Positions 1,999 through 20,598 of a DNA stretch of 64,000 nucleotides are shown one piece after another (position 1 is the stretch's first letter; each line of letters begins with the position of its first letter). The notes below the pieces were generated by a model that made no database searches, was not told where the DNA came from, and was given only the letters and a program-made list of their open reading frames with translations. Both the position numbers and the translations under genes were made by a program. The stretch comes from Acidobacteriota bacterium (GTDB lineage: Bacteria > Acidobacteriota > Terriglobia > UBA7540): positions 1 to 64,000 of the forward strand of contig JAKCCV010000008.1 in assembly GCA_021838785.1 (NCBI GenBank). Reading direction: 5' to 3'.

Positions 1999-3284
1999 TC
2001 AGCTCCGAGCCTCCTGGATTGAGCTTATGGTAGCCGCCAGCCAGAGCGGCGAGCGACGCCGTCTGAGGGCCTCCAGGTAAAGCTCTTCGTTATAGGGGGT
2101 GTGCGTTTGCCAGCAGCGATAGAGGATACGAACCCATTTATAGGCCAGGGCGCGCACGGCAGCGTGGTGCGAAGCGCCGCGCTGGCGCTGCCGGTCATAA
2201 TAAGCCCGAGCCCAGAGCGAGCGATGAGTGGAGGCGGCAGCGAATTCGTGAAAGGTTTGGCGCAGGAACTTGGGACAGGCCATCCGCCAGTGCACCCCGT
2301 GCATCTTGCCGCTGGCTTCGGTGACCGGTGCGACACCGGAGAATTGCTGCAGTTCCTCAGCGCTCTGGAAGCGGTGGCGGTCGGAGCCGAAGGCCGCAGC
2401 CAGACGTGGGGCCAAGGCCTCGCCAGCACCCGGCAGACTGTTAAACAGCTCCTGGTCGGGATGCTGGCCAAACAGTCCCTCGATCGCCCGGTCGAGACGC
2501 TCCAGGGAGGCGATCACGGCCTGAAGCTGCTCGGCCAGCGTCTGGGCCATCAGCGCCGAGGCCTCCACCAGGGCCCGGTCCCGGGTGAGCGGCAGGGCGT
2601 CGTCGATCTGCTGGAAGAGTTGGCCGAGTTCTTCGGCCGACAGCCGGCGATGATCGTGATAGAACCGACGCAGGTGGGGACGGTGTGCTTTCTGGACCGC
2701 CTCCAGGGTGGGCCAGGTGCGGAGAAACTCGCAGGCTGCCGGACTGCGCAAGTCCCCGGCCCAATCCAGGGCTTGAGGGAAATAAGTCTTCAGCAGAGCG
2801 GTCAGGCGATTGGTCAGGCGGGTACGGTCGGCGACCGTGCGGCGGCGGTGTTCGACCAGCAGGCGTAGCTGCCGGGTCAGGGCGTCGTCGGGCTGCCAGG
2901 CTCGCAGGCGATCACGGTGGGTATGGACCAGCTCCAGCAACAGATCCGCGTCGGCGGGATCGCTCTTGGCACCGCTGGTGGCAAAGGCCTCGCGGTAGCG
3001 CGCCAGAGTCTTGGGCGGCACCGGATAGAGCAACAGGAAATCGTAGCTCATCAGAGCATAGATCACCGCCCCCGCGATTGCTCCAGCGCCAGGGCGATCT
3101 TGCCCTGCGGAAAACGGGCACGCATTTGAGCGATCTAGGCGTGCAGGGTTTCGGGTTTTTGTTCCACAGTGAACCGCTCGACCCGCGGCGAGTCAGCAGT
3201 TTGGAGACGAATTTCATGGCTCTGGTCAGCCCAGTCCAGGCCCACCCATGCCACAACTTCCAGCTTCGAAGCAGGTCTTTGCAT
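1999..3284 (-). pseudogene. IS110-family transposase, inactivated by a stop and a frameshift
   Basis: IS110 transposases use a RuvC-like DEDD domain plus a C-terminal serine domain and are guided by an element-encoded RNA. The full reading frame starts at ATG 3284 behind GGAGG. It shows the first catalytic Asp in VGLDWAD, the Glu in ALALEQSRG, the paired Asp in SDPADADLL, and the C-terminal SLPGAGEALA region with downstream Transposase_20 features. Two lesions break it: TAG at 3135-3137 (after ETLHA) and loss of one base near 3067-3073 between EQSRG and AVIYAL. From about 3066 to 1999 the frame is intact (355 residues). The intact protein would be about 428 residues. Confidence 0.85.
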
Positions 3285-8165: not shown

Positions 8166-9062
8166 TCATCGCGCAAAATCCTTGGCAATCCGCATCGTGT
8201 GGGTATGAATCTGCACGGTGTCTTCGAGCTTGCGCGCGTAGCCGCCGGCGAGCGTGATGACCAATGGGATCGCGAGCGTGTGCGCGCGCCCGATGACCAC
8301 CCGGTCGCGCTCGGCGAGGCCTTCGAGGGTCAACTTTAGCCCGCCTAATTGATCTTCGCGGTAAGGATCGGCGCCGGCCAGATAAAAAATGACGTTGGGT
8401 GAAAAACTTTCGAAGATTCTATCCAGGCTCTGCTGAAGAAGACGCAAATATTCCTTGTCGCCTGTACCATCGGGCAAGTTGATGTCAAGCGAACTGGGCG
8501 GTTTGGGATAAGGATAATTATTTTCCTGGTGCATGGAGAAGGTGAAGACCGAAGAATCGCCGGCAAAGATGGCGGCCGTGCCGTTCCCTTGATGGACATC
8601 GAGGTCCACGGTCAAGGCGCGCTCGATGAGTCGGTGCTTCTGCAGGCGGCGGATGGCGATGGCCACGTCGTGCAGCACGCAGAAGCCCTCGCCGTGGTCG
8701 GGAAAAGCGTGATGAAAGCCGCCGCCAATGTTGGCCGCCATGCCCTCTTCAAGCGCCAGTCGCCCGGCTAAAATCGAACCGCCCGCCGAGAGCCACACGG
8801 CGCGCACCAGCTCAGGAGAATAAGGCACTTCCATCCGCAAAATTTCAGTGTAAGAGAGTTTGCCGTTTTTCAATTTCCAGATGTACTCTCGCTCATGAAC
8901 CAGCGCCACATCGTCATCCGAGGCTGGCTCGGGCTCAACGAAGTCGTTGGGCTTGGCCACGCCATCCTCCAGCAATTTCTGCCGGACGAGTTTGTACTTG
9001 ACTGCCGGGAAGACGTGGTCGCCCAGGTGAAGATCGTATTGGTCGGAATAGGCAAATTTCAT
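8166..9062 (-). CDS. Histone-deacetylase-family hydrolase (acetoin utilisation/AcuC-like)
   Basis: 298 residues of the arginase/deacetylase fold, whose zinc enzymes remove acetyl groups from amines or lysines. Visible are the catalytic HH of GGGFHHAFPDHGEGFCVLHD, the zinc ligands Asp and His in VDLDVHQGNG, the third Asp in AGADPYRED, and the closing LAGGYAR. The start at 9062 (MKFAYSDQ) matches the usual N-terminus. A longer frame upstream overlaps the neighbouring gene and has no family similarity. It starts 7 nt after the ABM gene stop, so the two form an operon. The substrate is not predictable; acetylpolyamines or acetyl-CoA synthetase are known in the family. Confidence 0.85.
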   Translation of the reverse strand: MKFAYSDQYDLHLGDHVFPAVKYKLVRQKLLEDGVAKPNDFVEPEPASDDDVALVHEREYIWKLKNGKLSYTEILRMEVPYSPELVRAVWLSAGGSILAGRLALEEGMAANIGGGFHHAFPDHGEGFCVLHDVAIAIRRLQKHRLIERALTVDLDVHQGNGTAAIFAGDSSVFTFSMHQENNYPYPKPPSSLDINLPDGTGDKEYLRLLQQSLDRIFESFSPNVIFYLAGADPYREDQLGGLKLTLEGLAERDRVVIGRAHTLAIPLVITLAGGYARKLEDTVQIHTHTMRIAKDFAR

Positions 9063-11397: not shown

Positions 11398-12612
11398 TCA
11401 GGTTCGATAGGAGGCGTTGATGTCCACGTAGCGGTGCGTCAAATCGCAGGTCCACATGCGAGCCGCCGCTTGGCCTTGATGGAGATTGAGGCGCAACAGC
11501 ACTTCCTTTTGCGCCAACTCTTTTTTGGCTGCGGCTTCATCAAAGCCGGCGTCGAGCCCGCGACGACAAAGCGCCAGGCCGTTCACCCAAATATCTATCT
11601 TCTCAGGGTCAAAACGCGCGCCGGAATAGCCGGCGGCGCAGAGAACTCTTCCCCAGTTGGGATCATTGCCATAAAGCGCGGTTTTGACCAGCGGCGAATT
11701 GGCGATGGCGCGGGCGGCGCGCTCAGCGTCGGCTTCATTGCGCGCGCCCAGGACCTCAACGGTAACGAGTTTGGTTGCGCCCTCGCCGTCGCGGGCGATC
11801 ATCTTGGCGAGCGTTTGGCAGAGTTCCACCAGGCCGGCTTCGAACCACCGTGCGTTGCCCTCGACGATTTTGACGCCCGCATAACCGTTGGCCAGCACCA
11901 GCACCGTGTCATTGGTGGACGTGTCGCCGTCCACGCTGACGCGGTTGAAGGATTGGCGCACAGCGGACCGCAGCAGGCGTCCCAACAAGGCCGGGGACAC
12001 TTCGGCGTCCGTCGCAATAAAAGAGAGCATCGTGGCCATGCGAGGGTGGATCATGCCGGCGCCTTTGGCCACCCCTGCCAAATGAACGGCGCGGCCGCGG
12101 AACTCGGAGCGCAATACGCAGGATTTGGCGAACGTGTCCGTGGTCATGATGGCGTGCGGCACTTCGGCGGCGTTCTCAGACGACAGTCGCTCGACCAGGC
12201 CGGGAAGCTGTCCGAGGACGAGGTCCGTAGGGAGCGGCACGCCAATGACCCCCGTCGAGCAGACGAGGACTTGGTTCGACGGAATGGCCAGCCGTCGGGC
12301 AACGGCTTGGACCGTGCGCTCGGCGGCTTGGCGGCCCAGGCGGCCCGTTCCGGCATTGGCGTTGCCGGAGTTAACCACAATGGCCCGCGCACGGCCGCGG
12401 CTTTGAGCCAGGTTCCGACGTGAAACGACCACGGGTGCTGCGGCGGCGCGGTTGGAGGTGAAGGTTCCGGCGGCCGTGGTCTCGGCGCCTTCGGACACAA
12501 TGAGCGCCAGGTCGAGCGCGCCCGGCTTCTTTTTGAAGCCAGCGGCCGCCGCCGCGGCTCGAAAACCCTTGGGCGTTCCCAGGTGACCTTCCGTTGCTTC
12601 CCAACGTTTCAT
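11398..12612 (-). CDS. argJ: ArgJ, bifunctional ornithine acetyltransferase/N-acetylglutamate synthase
   Basis: 404 residues. ArgJ moves the acetyl group from N-acetylornithine to glutamate (and in bifunctional forms uses acetyl-CoA) in arginine synthesis. It matures by self-cleavage: KGAGM at 183-187 and MATML at 192-196, cut between Ala193 and Thr194, with Thr194 as new N-terminal nucleophile. Also visible are [11 protein letters not shown] and GDTSTNDT. The start at 12612 (MKRWEAT) has GGAGG about 11 nt ahead; the longer upstream frame has no family similarity. No other arg gene is in view, so whether it is bifunctional cannot be judged from context. Confidence 0.92.
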
Positions 12613-16138: not shown

Positions 16139-17278
16139 TCAAATGTTTTCTAGCGCCTGCTCCAAATCGGCGATCAAATCCTCGACATCTTCAATGCCCA
16201 CGGAGATGCGCACCAGGCCGTCGGTAATGCCGAGCCTTTGACGTTGCTCGGGTGGGACGCTCGCGTGTGTCATCGTCGCCGGATGCGAAATCAGCGTCTC
16301 GACGCCGCCCAGGCTTTCCGCGAGCGAGCAGAGCCGGACGGACTTCAGAACCTTTTTCGCATTTTCAAGCGAGCCGGTTTCAAATGACAACATGCCGCCA
16401 AAGCCGGTCATTTGCTTTTTAGCCAGCTCGTGCTGCGGGTGACTCGCAAGGCCGGGATAATGCACCCTTTTGACCTTGAGATGCTCGGACAAAAATTTGG
16501 CGACGGCCAGGCCGTTCTCATTGTGTTGGCGCATGCGGACGGCAAGCGTCTTGACGCCGCGCAGCACGAGCCAGCTATCCATCGGGCCGAGCACCGCGCC
16601 GGCGGCGTTCTGAATGAACTTCAACCGTTCCGCCAGGCCTGCATCCTTGAGAATCACCGCCCCGCCCACACCGTCGCTGTGACCGTTCAGGTATTTGGTG
16701 GTGCTATGCAGCACGATATCGGCCCCGAGCGCGAGGGGCCGTTGGAAATACGAACTCATAAACGTGTTGTCCACGGCCAAAAGCGCGTTCGAGCGATGCG
16801 CGAGCGCCGCGGCTTGCGCGATGTCCGTGATTTCCATGACGGGATTAGTCGGCGTTTCGATGTAAAGCAAGCGCGTCGTGGGCCGGAAAGCGCGCTCAGT
16901 CGCGGCCAGATCGGTCGTATCCGCGTAGGAGAAGTCGAGGCCGGTGTCTTTGAGCAGCCGCTCGAACAGACGGAACGTTCCGCCATAGAGATTGTGTCCT
17001 GCCACGATGTGGTCGCCGGGCTTGAACAGCGTCATCACGGCGTTAATCGCGGCCATGCCGGAGGCGAAAGCCAATCCGAACTCGCCGCCTTCCAGCCGCG
17101 CCAAGTTGCGCTCGAGCGCCGCCCGCGTCGGATTGGACGTCCGCGCGTACTCGTAGCCCTTGTGCTTGCCCAGCTCTTCCTGTACAAAGGTCGAAGTCTG
17201 ATAAATGGGAACGATAATCGCTCCCGTGGCCGGGTCAGGCTCCTGGCCCACATGAATCGCATCGGTTGAGAATCCCAT
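16139..17278 (-). CDS. Cystathionine gamma-synthase/gamma-lyase family PLP enzyme
   Basis: 379 residues of the Cys/Met-metabolism PLP family. The family either joins cysteine to an activated homoserine (synthase) or splits cystathionine (lyase). Visible are YARTSNPTR, the phosphate-binding FASGMAAI, ETPTNPVMEI, VDNTF with the Asp that contacts the PLP ring nitrogen, and HSTTKYLNGHSD with the Schiff-base Lys195. C-terminal SLGGVETLISHPATMTHA is typical of CGS/CGL. AGGAGATT precedes the start. Sequence alone does not separate synthase from lyase, and no partner gene in view decides it. Confidence 0.9.
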   Translation of the reverse strand: MGFSTDAIHVGQEPDPATGAIIVPIYQTSTFVQEELGKHKGYEYARTSNPTRAALERNLARLEGGEFGLAFASGMAAINAVMTLFKPGDHIVAGHNLYGGTFRLFERLLKDTGLDFSYADTTDLAATERAFRPTTRLLYIETPTNPVMEITDIAQAAALAHRSNALLAVDNTFMSSYFQRPLALGADIVLHSTTKYLNGHSDGVGGAVILKDAGLAERLKFIQNAAGAVLGPMDSWLVLRGVKTLAVRMRQHNENGLAVAKFLSEHLKVKRVHYPGLASHPQHELAKKQMTGFGGMLSFETGSLENAKKVLKSVRLCSLAESLGGVETLISHPATMTHASVPPEQRQRLGITDGLVRISVGIEDVEDLIADLEQALENI

Positions 17279-17421
17279 AATCTCCTTCCTCCCTGTAGTG
17301 CCGGTCTATGACCGGCGGTCGGTCTCTGTCCTCCGAGCCGCGGGTTCGTGAGCCCCCGCGACACACACGATGCAGTATCGCGGCTACCTGCTCTGAATTG
17401 CCACCAAAAAAATCAGGAATT

Positions 17422-17657
17422 GCGAGTAGCGCCGAGGCGCGCGTTTTGTGCGCTCCTCTGCAGCGCTTGTACCGTCAGCCGCGGCAACCAGGCGTTCCCA
17501 ACGAATGGACGGCGACCGCGGCCAAGGGCAGCGGAAGTCGGACGGCCCAGCGCGTCGCGCGGGGTTACGGAGTGTGCAACTCTGAGATTCTTTCCGGCGG
17601 GCACCGGCCCGAGCCGCAAAGGAAGCCACACCACGGCGGCCTATGCGCTACCCCGCT
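17422..17657 (+). repeat. Copy R1 of a ~235-bp MITE-like repeat
   Basis: Related in the same orientation to R2 (19792-20022) and R3 (20327-20452). The ends carry degenerate inverted repeats: left GAGTAGCGCCGAGG, right CCTATGCGCTACCCCGCT. The interior shares CGCGCGTTTT, AATGGACGGCGACC, CGGCCCAGC and CACCGGCCCGAGCCGCA with R2. Its right end contains the last codons and the TAG of the methyltransferase gene. No transposase is encoded. Confidence 0.75.
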
Positions 17658-18838
17658 GCGGGGCGCGCCTCTCCAGCAGGGTTGCTAGCAAGCTTCCTGA
17701 TGAGGAGGATGGTTTCGTGCTTGGTGGTCTGCGTTCTTCTTCGGGTGCGGCGTGCGTCGGGAATCTCATCCACCAGCAACTTCTCAGCCGAAGCGCAGCG
17801 ATGGTAGAGGCTCCGAACGGTTTCCGCGAGCGTTGCGGCGGAGTCTCGGCGACGGCCGTCTCTGTGGTAGTCTCCCAGGACCAAGACAGCGCACTTGCCC
17901 GGCTTAAGCAACCGCAGCATTTCGCCCAAGGCCCGGGTCATTTGCGGGACGTAGACCCGCTCGCTGGAGGTTAGCCCCGCATCAATCTCCCGATAATCCT
18001 CCACGCCCAAAAACCAAAGCCTCAGCCTGTTGTCGCGGCCATAATCCAGCGCCCCGTAGTAGGGCGGGCTGGAAATAACGGCGTCAACGGAGTTGTCCTG
18101 GAGCGGCAAAGACATTGCATTCTCTCGCAGCACGACGCGGTTGAGGTCCGGCCTGGGAGGTTCAAACCTCCGATAGGCGCGCGCTATCTTTGCCAGGAAT
18201 CGCGGCCGGACCGGCCGGTAGCGGTAGAGGTCGGGATAGGCCGCCGGAGGGTATTTCTTAATCCGGAGGTACGGAACTAGGTGGCTGGCGGGATAGGAAA
18301 GGAAGCCGGGGCGGACATGGTGCAGGATGCCGAGAAGGCACGCAAGGAGGAAGTATTCTCGCCGGCGCTTCAGGATCCTGGCCAAGGCCACAGCCTCCTG
18401 GAGGGTTTGAGGATGGAAAAACGCCCTGACCCACGCTGGCACCTCGGTCGGACAAACATTTTCGTCGTCGGCTTCTTCGAAGGCCTCAAGGGCTCGGGCC
18501 GTCGCCTCGGCGTGCGTCGCGGGGGCTGACAGCTTTCCCATCGTCAAGACGTAGGCGTAAGGGTTGAGGTCATTGCCGATCGCATGGCGGCGACTTAGGA
18601 GGGCCTCGAAGGGCACGACGCCAGACCCGCAGAAGGGGTCGAGCACCACGTCCCCCTCACGAGTGAACTCCTCGATGAGGGCACGAGCCATGCCCGACTT
18701 CATTTTTCCGACGTAGGGGGACAACTGGTGAATAGAGCTCTCCTTGGCATTGAAGCAGCCCTCCCACTGGGAGCCATCAATGCCCGCCCTTCCCGCGGCC
18801 GCGCACGGCTGTTGAAATAGGCCGGGTTGCCTAAGCAT
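17648..18838 (-). CDS. DNA methyltransferase (SPPY, probable N4-cytosine type)
   Basis: 396 residues. The AdoMet-binding motif DPFCGSG is at 67-73 and the catalytic SPPYYGALDY at 257-266, with about 180 residues between. SPPY is typical of N4-cytosine modifying enzymes. The order (FCGSG before SPPY) with a large spacer puts target recognition probably between the two. The C-terminal LGEMLRLLKPGKCAVLVLGD is also family-like. The last codons (RPAAG) and stop lie inside repeat R1. Its ATG overlaps the end of the upstream nuclease-like gene by 8 bp, so it is co-translated with it as a type II-like pair. Confidence 0.85.
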   Translation of the reverse strand: MLRQPGLFQQPCAAAGRAGIDGSQWEGCFNAKESSIHQLSPYVGKMKSGMARALIEEFTREGDVVLDPFCGSGVVPFEALLSRRHAIGNDLNPYAYVLTMGKLSAPATHAEATARALEAFEEADDENVCPTEVPAWVRAFFHPQTLQEAVALARILKRRREYFLLACLLGILHHVRPGFLSYPASHLVPYLRIKKYPPAAYPDLYRYRPVRPRFLAKIARAYRRFEPPRPDLNRVVLRENAMSLPLQDNSVDAVISSPPYYGALDYGRDNRLRLWFLGVEDYREIDAGLTSSERVYVPQMTRALGEMLRLLKPGKCAVLVLGDYHRDGRRRDSAATLAETVRSLYHRCASAEKLLVDEIPDARRTRRRTQTTKHETILLIRKLASNPAGEARPAAG

Positions 18839-19697
18839 TGGTGATACTCTCCTCCATAACCCTACCGAGGTGTAATATTCGGGTGCGCCTCATATAGACC
18901 TGTCTCCCGCGCCTGGCAGCCGAGACCAGATGAATCTCCACTGACCAGGTGTGCTTAGCTCGGTCGCGTGGCGCGACTCCGAAGACGTCCAGAACCATCG
19001 CCGGCAAGTAAAGGGACTCGAGCGAGTGGGTTGGCGGGGACGGCTGCTGAGGGGTGGGGCGCTCGCGGGGCATCAGGAAGATGTCAGGCGAGATTTGGTC
19101 GTTCGTCACGTGCGCCTTATACTTGGGACACCTTCGTAGAGGGCAGCCGCACAACTGGTCCTTGAAGAAAATTGCGTCCACCACTTTTCCGCGCCTCATC
19201 AGGTCGTTGGCGAGCCTGTTGACCACAATCGAGTGAACCCCCTGCGAAGGCTGGTTGATGATGGAGCCGTCCAGGTGGCACCACATCACAAACTCCTGCG
19301 CCCAGGGAGGTCGCTCTGTGATGGTGATGCTATTTCCTTCGCCGCCCTTCACGTCCAGGGCCGCGGCGACGCGGGGACGCTCCGTGAGGATAATCGTGAA
19401 GTCGTGGCGCGTGGCTTTCTTCGTTGGTTCGAATCCGCCAATCTTTGCACTGTTAGCCAGGCGCGAAAGGACATCGGCCACCATCTGATGGCGCTGGGTG
19501 AGCGAGGAGGCAATAAAACTGCCTCGGATGGTCTCTACTGCGGAGCGGAATATGCGTTTGGGGTGGTAGTCCTCCGGGTTGACCCCGGCGGACCGCAACA
19601 CGTCGGGATGGCGATCGTCGAGATTTCGCAAGAGGTCGATGGCAGGATTGATTTGCGCAAGGGCGGCCTGGTCGTGCGAGCAAGGCAATATGGGCAT
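18831..19697 (-). CDS. Putative restriction endonuclease, unrecognised family
   Basis: 288 residues without a family I can name. Residues 99-117 read D...LDVKGG: Asp99, then Asp115-Val-Lys117, which fits a PD-(D/E)XK nuclease core. A Cys cluster (C183, C185, C190, in CGCPLRRCPKY) could bind zinc or DNA. It is directly upstream of and overlaps the methyltransferase, the arrangement of restriction-modification pairs. The start at 19697 is chosen because GGAGG lies 12 nt upstream and the promoter -10 box is at 19732-19727; an in-frame TTG at 19727 falls inside that box and cannot be the start. Function is inferred from context. Confidence 0.5.
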   Translation of the reverse strand: MPILPCSHDQAALAQINPAIDLLRNLDDRHPDVLRSAGVNPEDYHPKRIFRSAVETIRGSFIASSLTQRHQMVADVLSRLANSAKIGGFEPTKKATRHDFTIILTERPRVAAALDVKGGEGNSITITERPPWAQEFVMWCHLDGSIINQPSQGVHSIVVNRLANDLMRRGKVVDAIFFKDQLCGCPLRRCPKYKAHVTNDQISPDIFLMPRERPTPQQPSPPTHSLESLYLPAMVLDVFGVAPRDRAKHTWSVEIHLVSAARRGRQVYMRRTRILHLGRVMEESITNA

Positions 19698-19726
19698 CTG
19701 GGGCCGGGACCTCCGGATTCCCGCCA

Positions 19727-19735
19727 ATTATACCA
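19727..19735 (-). promoter_or_regulatory. Extended -10 promoter of the restriction-modification pair
   Basis: The minus strand reads TGGTATAAT at 19735-19727, an extended -10 with perfect TATAAT. Transcription would start near 19720, about 23 nt before the ATG at 19697. It lies between repeat R2 and the nuclease gene, so it travels with the cassette. Confidence 0.6.
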
Positions 19736-19791
19736 CGCTCCCTGACGCTCGCCGCCGCGCCGGCTTCTCGCACGGGCCCTTCGGTGCGTTG

Positions 19792-20022
19792 AGCGGGTAG
19801 CGCAGAGGCGCGCGTTTTTGGCGCTCCTGTGTGGCGCTTGCACCGCCGGCCCCGGCAGCCAGGCGTTGGCAAAGAATGGACGGCGACCAGGTCAACGGCC
19901 GCAGAGGTTGAATGGCCCAGCCCGCCGCGCGGGGTTGCGGAATGTGAAACATTGCGGTTCCTTCCGGCAGGCACCGGCCCGAGCCGCAGAGGTTGCGACG
20001 CGCAACCTCTGCGCTACCCGCT
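19792..20022 (+). repeat. Copy R2 of the MITE-like repeat, best preserved
   Basis: 231 bp bounded by nearly perfect 17-bp inverted ends, AGCGGGTAGCGCAGAGG and CCTCTGCGCTACCCGCT. Near the right end a perfect 12-bp stem, GCAGAGGTTGCG/CGCAACCTCTGC with loop ACG, spans 19986-20012. It has the same orientation as R1, with the restriction-modification genes between. No clear target duplication is visible. Confidence 0.8.
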
Positions 20023-20077
20023 TAATGAGGTTACGTCGGGCAGCATGGATCGACACAGCAGCTTCCGCAAGACGCGG

Positions 20078-20320
20078 TCACTGCACAGGCACATGCTTCG
20101 GTACCGTCACAAAGCACACAGCAGCACGGTGGTACGCATCTGATGGCGGGAACCGGCGGGTCAGAAGGTGTGGTGTGGAGGCTACCTTCATGACAGCCCT
20201 AGCTGGGAGGTTCATCCCCAGGTCCGCCGATTCACGGAAGTAGTTGACCAAGCTCGCATCTTTCCTCGCAATCGTGATCTTAGAAAGCCACAGCTTTAAA
20301 GGTGGCCGGGTCTTCGTAAG
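20078..20320 (-). pseudogene. Unidentified coding-like fragment between R2 and R3
   Basis: The minus strand holds an open frame of about 80 residues ending at a TGA at 20078 (...CFVTVPKHVPVQ). Its composition looks protein-like, with segments such as LWLSKITIARKDASLVNYF and DLGMNLPARAVMKV. The frame runs without a stop into R3, suggesting a gene whose 5' part was replaced by that repeat. No family recognised. Confidence 0.25.
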
Positions 20321-20326
20321 TTCCGG

Positions 20327-20452
20327 GGCCGCAGGGGTTGAACGGCCCAGCGCGTAGGGCGGGATTACGCATTGCGAAACTCTGCCGTTCTTTCCGGCAG
20401 GCACCGGCTCGAGCCGCAGAGGTTGCGACGCGCAACCTCTGCGCTACCTGCT
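20327..20452 (+). repeat. Copy R3 of the MITE-like repeat, right half only
   Basis: Matches the right half of R2: CCGCAGGGGTTGAACGGCCCAGC, then TTCTTTCCGGCAGGCACCGG, then the same 12-bp stem (20416-20442) and terminal CCTCTGCGCTACCTGCT. The left terminus is absent. Confidence 0.75.
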
Positions 20453-20598
20453 GGGAGCGACATTGCCGGTTGCAGACCAGCGCGACAACAGCGGGCGCGG
20501 GCCGGGGCGACCACTTGCCTTTGGCCGATTCGTCGGCGAGTAACGGTAATAGGCCGGGGCAACAGCGGTGGTGGTGGACCGGCGCGACGGGCGGCGAA

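What the first reader, a model, noticed from the sequence alone, without database searches (positions are those of the whole stretch)
17422..20022. Restriction-modification pair bracketed by two copies of a MITE-like repeat
The methyltransferase and its overlapping nuclease-like gene, with their own extended -10 promoter, fill almost exactly the 2.1 kb between two same-orientation repeats (R1, R2). A third partial copy lies 0.3 kb further on. R2 has 17-bp inverted ends and an internal 12-bp hairpin. The arrangement looks like a composite mobile cassette that could move or be lost by recombination between the repeats.
Basis: partly seen in the sequence, partly recalled or inferred. Interest (0 to 1): 0.68.

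Follow-up and report, generated by a model that had tools for sequence, protein, structure and literature searches.

The report
Repeat-bracketed, exchangeable restriction-modification cassettes
In this acidobacterium and its closest sequenced relative, restriction enzymes and other anti-virus genes sit between same-direction copies of a small mobile-looking repeat; the repeats mark where different defence genes were swapped and where chromosome pieces were rejoined, and the window's gene pair is one of at least six such slots.

Summary
A type II restriction-modification (R-M) pair fills the 2.1 kb between two direct copies (79-81% identical) of a ~235-bp element with 17-bp inverted ends and a terminal hairpin; a third partial copy lies 0.3 kb on. 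The element is a family of about 16 larger copies plus ~20 end fragments in this genome. Copies also bracket unrelated defence modules: NgoMIV-type R-M, BsuBI/PstI-type R-M fusion, two further R-M pairs, an MmeI-type IIG enzyme and PDC-S19/S54. Four of 13 methyltransferase loci outside the window fall in 1.24% of the genome (P about 2e-5). At one site three congeneric genomes show a repeat-free empty site, repeats with a toxin-like pair, and repeats with the NgoMIV R-M. All seven synteny breaks examined between the sister species lie 0-59 bp from a repeat end; the window's R-M changed its left neighbour at such ends. No transposase with matching ends and no target-site duplication was found. 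Best reading: repeat-delimited defence-gene exchange slots, comparable to Neisseria minimal mobile elements, driven mainly by recombination between dispersed repeats. This is a new variant of a known kind; the composite-transposon version is not supported.

The parts
16139..17278 (-). Cys/Met metabolism PLP enzyme (metB-like), left conserved flank
   Evidence: Pfam PF01053 E=3.5e-159; G000/G002 homology on this side ends at 17457 inside R1
17421..17657 (+). R1, full repeat copy with type-A body and type-B (RepB) right end
   Evidence: nhmmer 198 bits; left end 17421-17474, RepB right end 17611-17657
17648..18838 (-). DNA amino-methyltransferase of the R-M pair (motifs DPFCGSG then SPPY)
   Evidence: PF01555 56 bits; PADLOC MTase_II 95 bits; stop codon lies in R1's terminal CTAC
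18831..19697 (-). Type II restriction endonuclease of the pair; conserved (D/E)VKGGEG(N/I)S motif
   Evidence: PADLOC REase_II PDLC03501 82 bits; next to the MTase in 33 of 36 genomes; AlphaFold model pLDDT 83 but no confident PDB match
19727..19735 (-). Extended -10 promoter element TGGTATAAT of the R-M operon
   Evidence: read directly; conserved in G002
19792..20025 (+). R2, full repeat copy with perfect 17-bp inverted ends
   Evidence: positional counterpart in G002 84% identical although flanks are 93-96%
19985..20013 (+). Right-end hairpin of R2
   Evidence: DNA fold z = -4.97
20318..20452 (+). R3, partial repeat copy (model positions 99-233)
   Evidence: nhmmer 124 bits
20599..21132 (-). 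Right conserved flank gene (no Pfam family); G000/G002 homology resumes at 20588
   Evidence: next to the R-M in G002 too, next to other genes in G001 and G003

Best explanation
R1-[R-M]-R2-R3 is one of several defence-gene slots delimited by dispersed direct copies of a ~235-bp GTAG-ended, hairpin-tipped, MITE/REPIN-like element found in this species (G000) and its close relative (G002). The repeats spread first (spreading mechanism unknown, now probably inactive here). They then serve as short shared homologies: recombination between a resident copy and a copy on incoming or excised DNA inserts a module between direct repeats; recombination between the flanking pair deletes it; recombination between copies at different loci rejoins chromosome arms. 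In the window, the R-M block with R2 is shared with G002, but its left neighbour differs because the left junction was remade at a repeat, giving mosaic R1. Shown: direct-repeat bracketing, several unrelated cargos, an empty site, alternative cargo at one site, breakpoints at repeat ends. Inferred: that homologous (or slippage) recombination is the agent, and that carriers are circles or transformed DNA. The carried pair is a type II R-M system with its own promoter; its activity is not tested.
For: Copies bracket or abut unrelated modules: NgoMIV R-M plus DUF1828/PDC-M24B; BsuBI/PstI-type R-M fusion; N6/N4 MTase with RE-like gene and DUF3800; R-M pair PDLC03583; MmeI IIG; PDC-S19/PDC-S54; in G002 a ZorD/DpdE-like helicase, an Eco57I-type IIG enzyme and a PBECR2-like pair. 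Enrichment: 4 of 13 MTase loci outside the window in 1.24% of the genome, P=1.6e-5, or 2.3e-4 with the fraction doubled. Site C24/C54: same flanks, different cargo in G000 and G002; genes 105 bp apart and no repeat in G001. Every repeat pair reported by self-alignment in the clusters is direct. Seven of seven synteny breaks inspected lie within 0-59 bp of a repeat end in at least one genome; 4.2% of positions in these loci lie within 60 bp. metB|right and Y|X in G000 become metB|X and Y|right in G002 with consistent repeat orientation. In G002 the two repeats around this R-M are 93% identical to each other, but the right one is only 84% identical to R2. No TSD.
Against: Repeats also occur where no defence gene is known (C1, C31, C25:33.5 kb, C12). 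R1 and R2 are only 79-81% identical, a poor homologous-recombination substrate today. The C24 site also has a 243-bp (98%) direct duplication outside the repeat around the DUF1828 gene, so another insertion route (long target duplication) is active there. Loci for the breakpoint test were chosen because they hold repeats. G002 is a 57%-complete, low-coverage MAG, and the rearrangement rests on two of its contigs. Excision was not observed. The window's own ancestral empty site was not recovered.
Confidence: 0.6

Rival explanations
1. Bystander model: both repeats and horizontally acquired defence genes simply accumulate in dispensable intergenic or island regions, and the repeats play no part in acquisition or exchange.
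For: Some repeat copies have no defence cargo. Other MTase loci lack the repeats: of 9 control loci only one had a repeat end within a few kb. At C24 a 243-bp duplication outside the repeat explains one insertion.
Against: Homology ends at repeat termini to within 0-3 bp in one or both genomes at several junctions; bracketing pairs are direct; junctions were exchanged between two loci with matching orientation; within-cluster copies are the most similar in G002 C218 and C150.
Confidence: 0.22
2. Dedicated mobile cassettes: the ends are recognised by a transposase or recombinase in trans (composite-transposon, REPIN/RAYT or integron-like), which excises and inserts repeat-module units.
For: GTAG at the foot of palindromes at both ends as in REP elements (PMC3733652); breakpoints at the exact terminus; similar ends on different interiors, with types A and B; direct repeats around each module.
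Against: No Y1 transposase in the 98.45%-complete genome, and one weak hit in G002; no TSD; no transposase gene found between matching ends in the regions read; IS110 genes beside copies look like insertions near the repeats.
Confidence: 0.13
3. Assembly artefact: repeat-induced joins in draft genomes create the apparent exchanges.
For: G002 is a fragmented MAG; its contig carrying this R-M has 3.1x coverage in its record title.
Against: Repeat copies differ by 10-25% and are short, so collapse is unlikely; G000 contigs are long (142 kb); the R-M with repeats on both sides is seen in two independent assemblies; the empty, G002 and G000 states of the C24 site come from three assemblies.
Confidence: 0.05

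Closest known systems
Minimal mobile elements and NIME repeat arrays of Neisseria (Saunders and Snyder 2002, as described in PMC3898611)
   Same: Conserved flanking genes with alternative whole-gene cassettes between related genomes; repeat arrays proposed to promote exchange
   Different: Here the slot borders are copies of one 235-bp hairpin-ended repeat family, direct in orientation, at many loci, with mostly defence cargo; homologous recombination in flanking genes is not shown
GTAG REPs / REPINs and their RAYT transposases (PMC3733652, PMC3116915)
   Same: GTAG at the foot of palindromes, two in inverted orientation at the element ends, dispersed mostly between genes
   Different: 235 bp instead of doublets with common spacings of 71 or 110 bp; no RAYT in this genome; the repeats bracket gene cargo
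R-M units flanked by direct IS repeats, or inserted with long target duplication (PMC3031569 and references therein)
   Same: R-M pair between direct repeats; link to inversions or translocations; long duplications seen at C24
   Different: Flanking repeat is non-coding and shared by many unrelated modules; no IS
Correia elements and other bacterial MITEs (PMC3898611)
   Same: Short, non-coding, terminal inverted repeats, many copies
   Different: No TA or other target duplication detected; no parent transposase known
Type II R-M pairs of the PDLC03501 REase family (PADLOC)
   Same: REase-MTase order and close linkage; 40-53% identity to homologues in Chloroflexi, Cyanobacteria, KSB1, Methanothrix and others
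   Different: Only the G000/G002 copies were found between this repeat family

Membership tests
Type II restriction-modification system | DNA MTase with SAM and catalytic motifs | tested here: met
   PF01555, PADLOC MTase_II; DPFCGSG and SPPY
Type II restriction-modification system | Cognate endonuclease gene linked to the MTase | tested here: met
   PDLC03501 82 bits; linkage in 33 of 36 genomes
Type II restriction-modification system | PD-(D/E)XK or other nuclease fold | tested here: inconclusive
   Conserved (D/E)VKGGEG motif; Foldseek gave no match at E<=0.001, with AvaII, EcoRV and BsmI only among weak hits
Type II restriction-modification system | Restriction and methylation activity | not testable with these tools
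   needs methylome and plating assays
Composite transposon | Flanking insertion sequences that carry or match a transposase | tested here: not met
   Repeats are non-coding; no transposase between matching ends in regions read; Y1_Tnp absent. Other transposase families were not searched genome-wide
Composite transposon | Target-site duplication | tested here: not met
   13 copies, mean longest match 2.8 bp against 2.5 in shuffles
REPIN/RAYT system | Two GTAG palindromes in inverted orientation | tested here: met
   ends GTAGCGCAGAGG.. and ..CCTCTGCGCTAC; right-end hairpin z=-5, but left-end hairpin not better than shuffles, z=-0.65
REPIN/RAYT system | Cognate RAYT in the genome | tested here: not met
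   no PF01797 match in G000; one weak match in G002
Minimal mobile element | Alternative cassettes between the same conserved genes in relatives | tested here: met
   C24 (G000), C54 (G002), C45 (G001). Not shown for the window locus itself
Minimal mobile element | Incorporation solely by homologous recombination, no element-coded enzyme | not testable with these tools
   no enzyme found, but recombination not assayed
Integron cassette array | attC core sites (RYYYAAC/GTTRRRY) at repeat ends and an IntI integrase | tested here: inconclusive
   Ends lack the attC core on inspection (AGCGGGTAGC...GCTACCCGCT); IntI not searched

The most novel reading that the evidence does not exclude
The element family is a dedicated capture-and-exchange system for defence genes in this acidobacterial lineage: a class of non-coding, hairpin-ended cassette borders (types A and B sharing a left end) acted on in trans by an unrecognised recombinase, giving a distributed, integron-like defence repertoire without an integron.
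Probability: 0.12. Interest if true: 0.88.

Novelty: new variant of a known kind. Interest (0 to 1): 0.62.

Why it matters
Complete R-M systems turn over rapidly, yet they are under-represented on plasmids and phages; how they move is noted as an open question (PMC4176335). A repeat family that marks slots holding different defence modules in sister species, with an empty outgroup site, offers a concrete, sequence-level route for that turnover and a marker (the repeat ends) for finding further defence genes in Acidobacteriota. The unannotated genes between repeats (for example L096:7272-8114, L142:2901-3719, L121:10403-12640) are candidates.

Tried and rejected
RAYT mobilisation: predicted from the GTAG ends, rejected for the present genome because PF01797 is absent. 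TSD search: nothing above shuffles. Structural RNA: no Rfam match. Repeats as carried by the R-M system itself: rejected, since homologues in other genera and phyla lack them. Repeats in viral contigs: exact right-end pattern found in none. Simple tandem duplication as origin of the R1/R2 pair: rejected, because R2 is closer to the C24 copy (85.5%) than to R1 (81%). A clean empty site for the window itself: not found; metB and the right-hand gene have different neighbours in G001 and G003. RE structure search in PDB: no significant match.

Full report
WHAT WAS CHECKED. The window lies in contig C28 of a 3.42-Mb, 98%-complete genome, G000. Its nearest relative with the same repeats, G002, is the MAG 'Acidobacteria bacterium YP1.bin18'. 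R1 (17421-17657), R2 (19792-20025) and R3 (20318-20452) are real, same-orientation members of one repeat family. R2 has a perfect 17-bp inverted terminus and a strong right-end hairpin. The two genes between R1 and R2 fill the interval. The MTase stop codon lies inside R1's terminal CTAC, and the operon has a consensus extended -10 (TGGTATAAT) upstream of the nuclease gene.

THE GENES. The 396-aa protein is a DNA amino-methyltransferase (PF01555; PADLOC MTase_II). The ~288-aa protein matches a PADLOC type II REase model at 82 bits. Homologues in 36 genomes from many phyla keep the same neighbour: the MTase follows directly in 33. So this is a genuine, widely transferred R-M pair. The nuclease fold could not be assigned from structure. 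In the same family's other genera (G021, G019, G023, G017) the pair sits in unrelated contexts without these repeats.

THE REPEAT FAMILY. Consensus length is 235 bp: GTAG-footed left end, variable middle, GTAG-footed right hairpin. A second right-end type (RepB) shares the left end and occurs alone or in 271-bp tandem units; R1 has a type-A body with a RepB end. G000 holds about 16 larger copies plus many end fragments, G002 about a dozen larger copies; G001 and G003 of the same genus have essentially none. No target duplication was detectable, and no Y1/RAYT transposase was found in G000.

IT BRACKETS DEFENCE GENES. Besides the window, copies bracket or abut: on C24 an NgoMIV-type RE with MTase, and a PDC-M24B/DUF1828 gene; on C34 an N6/N4 MTase, an RE-like gene and a DUF3800 protein; on C9 a BsuBI/PstI-type R-M fusion, with a RelA/SpoT-domain gene beyond the next copy; on C38 an R-M pair and an MmeI-type IIG enzyme; on C25 PDC-S19 and PDC-S54. 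In G002: a ZorD/DpdE-like SNF2 helicase beside this R-M, an Eco57I-type IIG enzyme, and a PBECR2-like gene with a 214-aa partner. Of 14 MTase loci (PF01555 and PF07669 above cut-off), 5 fall in repeat-delimited intervals that make up 1.24% of the genome. Without the window this is 4 of 13, P=1.6e-5. Among the other 9 loci only one has a repeat end nearby. Several repeat loci (C1, C31, C25:33.5 kb, C12) have no recognised defence gene.

EXCHANGE AND REARRANGEMENT. (a) Site C24/C54/C45: in G001 the two flanking genes are 105 bp apart with no repeat. In G002 the same flanks hold three tandem repeats, the PBECR2-like pair and a fourth repeat. In G000 they hold the DUF1828 gene, a repeat end, the NgoMIV R-M, a full repeat and a repeat end. 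In G000 a 302-bp direct repeat (repeat 3' part plus 200 bp) surrounds the NgoMIV R-M and a 243-bp, 98% direct duplication surrounds the DUF1828 gene. (b) In G000 metB joins R1-R-M-R2-R3-right flank, and on C25 flank Y is followed by a four-gene block, a repeat and flank X. In G002 metB is followed by repeats and X, while Y is followed by the helicase, a repeat, the R-M, a repeat and the right flank. The swap keeps repeat orientation, as recombination between repeat copies predicts. (c) Seven of seven synteny ends inspected at these loci lie 0-59 bp from a repeat end in at least one genome, several at 0-3 bp; 4.2% of positions in the same loci lie within 60 bp. The loci were chosen for holding repeats, so this supports precision rather than frequency. 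(d) Repeat pairs found by self-alignment around cargo are all direct, although end mapping also shows oppositely oriented pieces at C25:108 kb and C25:126 kb. (e) In G002 the repeats left and right of this R-M are 93% identical to each other, while the right one is 84% identical to its positional counterpart R2, although flanking DNA is 93-96% identical. This suggests duplication at insertion or gene conversion.

INTERPRETATION. The simplest reading that covers all this is that dispersed direct repeats serve as borders and recombination substrates of exchange slots into which defence modules are gained, lost and swapped, with occasional rejoining of distant chromosome parts. The window shows one slot whose left border was remade (mosaic R1). 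Direct repeats around cargo without target duplications fit single-crossover insertion of repeat-plus-module DNA and deletion between the pair; this step is inferred. A dedicated enzyme acting on the ends is possible but unsupported; a pure bystander association is possible but does not explain breakpoints at the repeat termini.

COMPARISON. It works most like the minimal mobile elements and repeat arrays of Neisseria (PMC3898611), with ends resembling GTAG REP/REPIN elements (PMC3733652, PMC3116915), and recalls R-M units between direct IS repeats (PMC3031569). It fails the composite-transposon tests (transposase, TSD) and the RAYT test. I found no paper describing one hairpin-ended repeat family bracketing many unrelated R-M modules, but only a library of openly licensed papers was searched.

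LIMITS. G002 is incomplete and low coverage; excision was not observed; the window's own empty site is not available; functions are by homology only.

Noticed in passing
L132:7441-8241 (G000:C38:124440-125240): 271-bp tandem units made of the same left end and the RepB right end lie directly upstream of an MmeI-type IIG gene (L132:8341-11133); a related 197-bp copy lies beyond it at 12155.
   Followed up: partly
L129:276-813 and 2662-3194 (G000:C12): Tandem ~2.2-kb duplication (96.7-99% identical) with repeat copies and a gene with a UvrD/RecD-like C-terminal domain near a contig start; could be real or an assembly overlap.
   Followed up: no
L137:4529-5851 and L122:7139-7417: An IS110-family transposase and a 98%-identical remnant both lie beside repeat copies, possibly insertion near REP-like palindromes.
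   Followed up: no
L141:2287-2903 (G002:C54): Three head-to-tail repeat copies with 195-bp period, joined at the shared CCTCTGCG, as from slippage or unequal exchange.
   Followed up: partly
L095:8493-8725 (G002:C218): This copy's termini differ from consensus but stay perfectly complementary (AGATACAAGC... / ...GCTTGTATCT), as if the ends were co-converted.
   Followed up: no
L261:5605-5667 and 8351-8413 (G000:C31): A 63-bp, 97% direct repeat unrelated to this family brackets another MTase gene.
   Followed up: no
window 20026-20317: Spacer between R2 and R3 is absent from G002, which has a RepB copy there instead.
   Followed up: partly
L096:7272-8114, L142:2901-3719, L121:10403-12640: Genes lying between repeats without clear family matches (L142 weakly like uracil-DNA glycosylases); candidate unknown defence genes.
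   Followed up: partly
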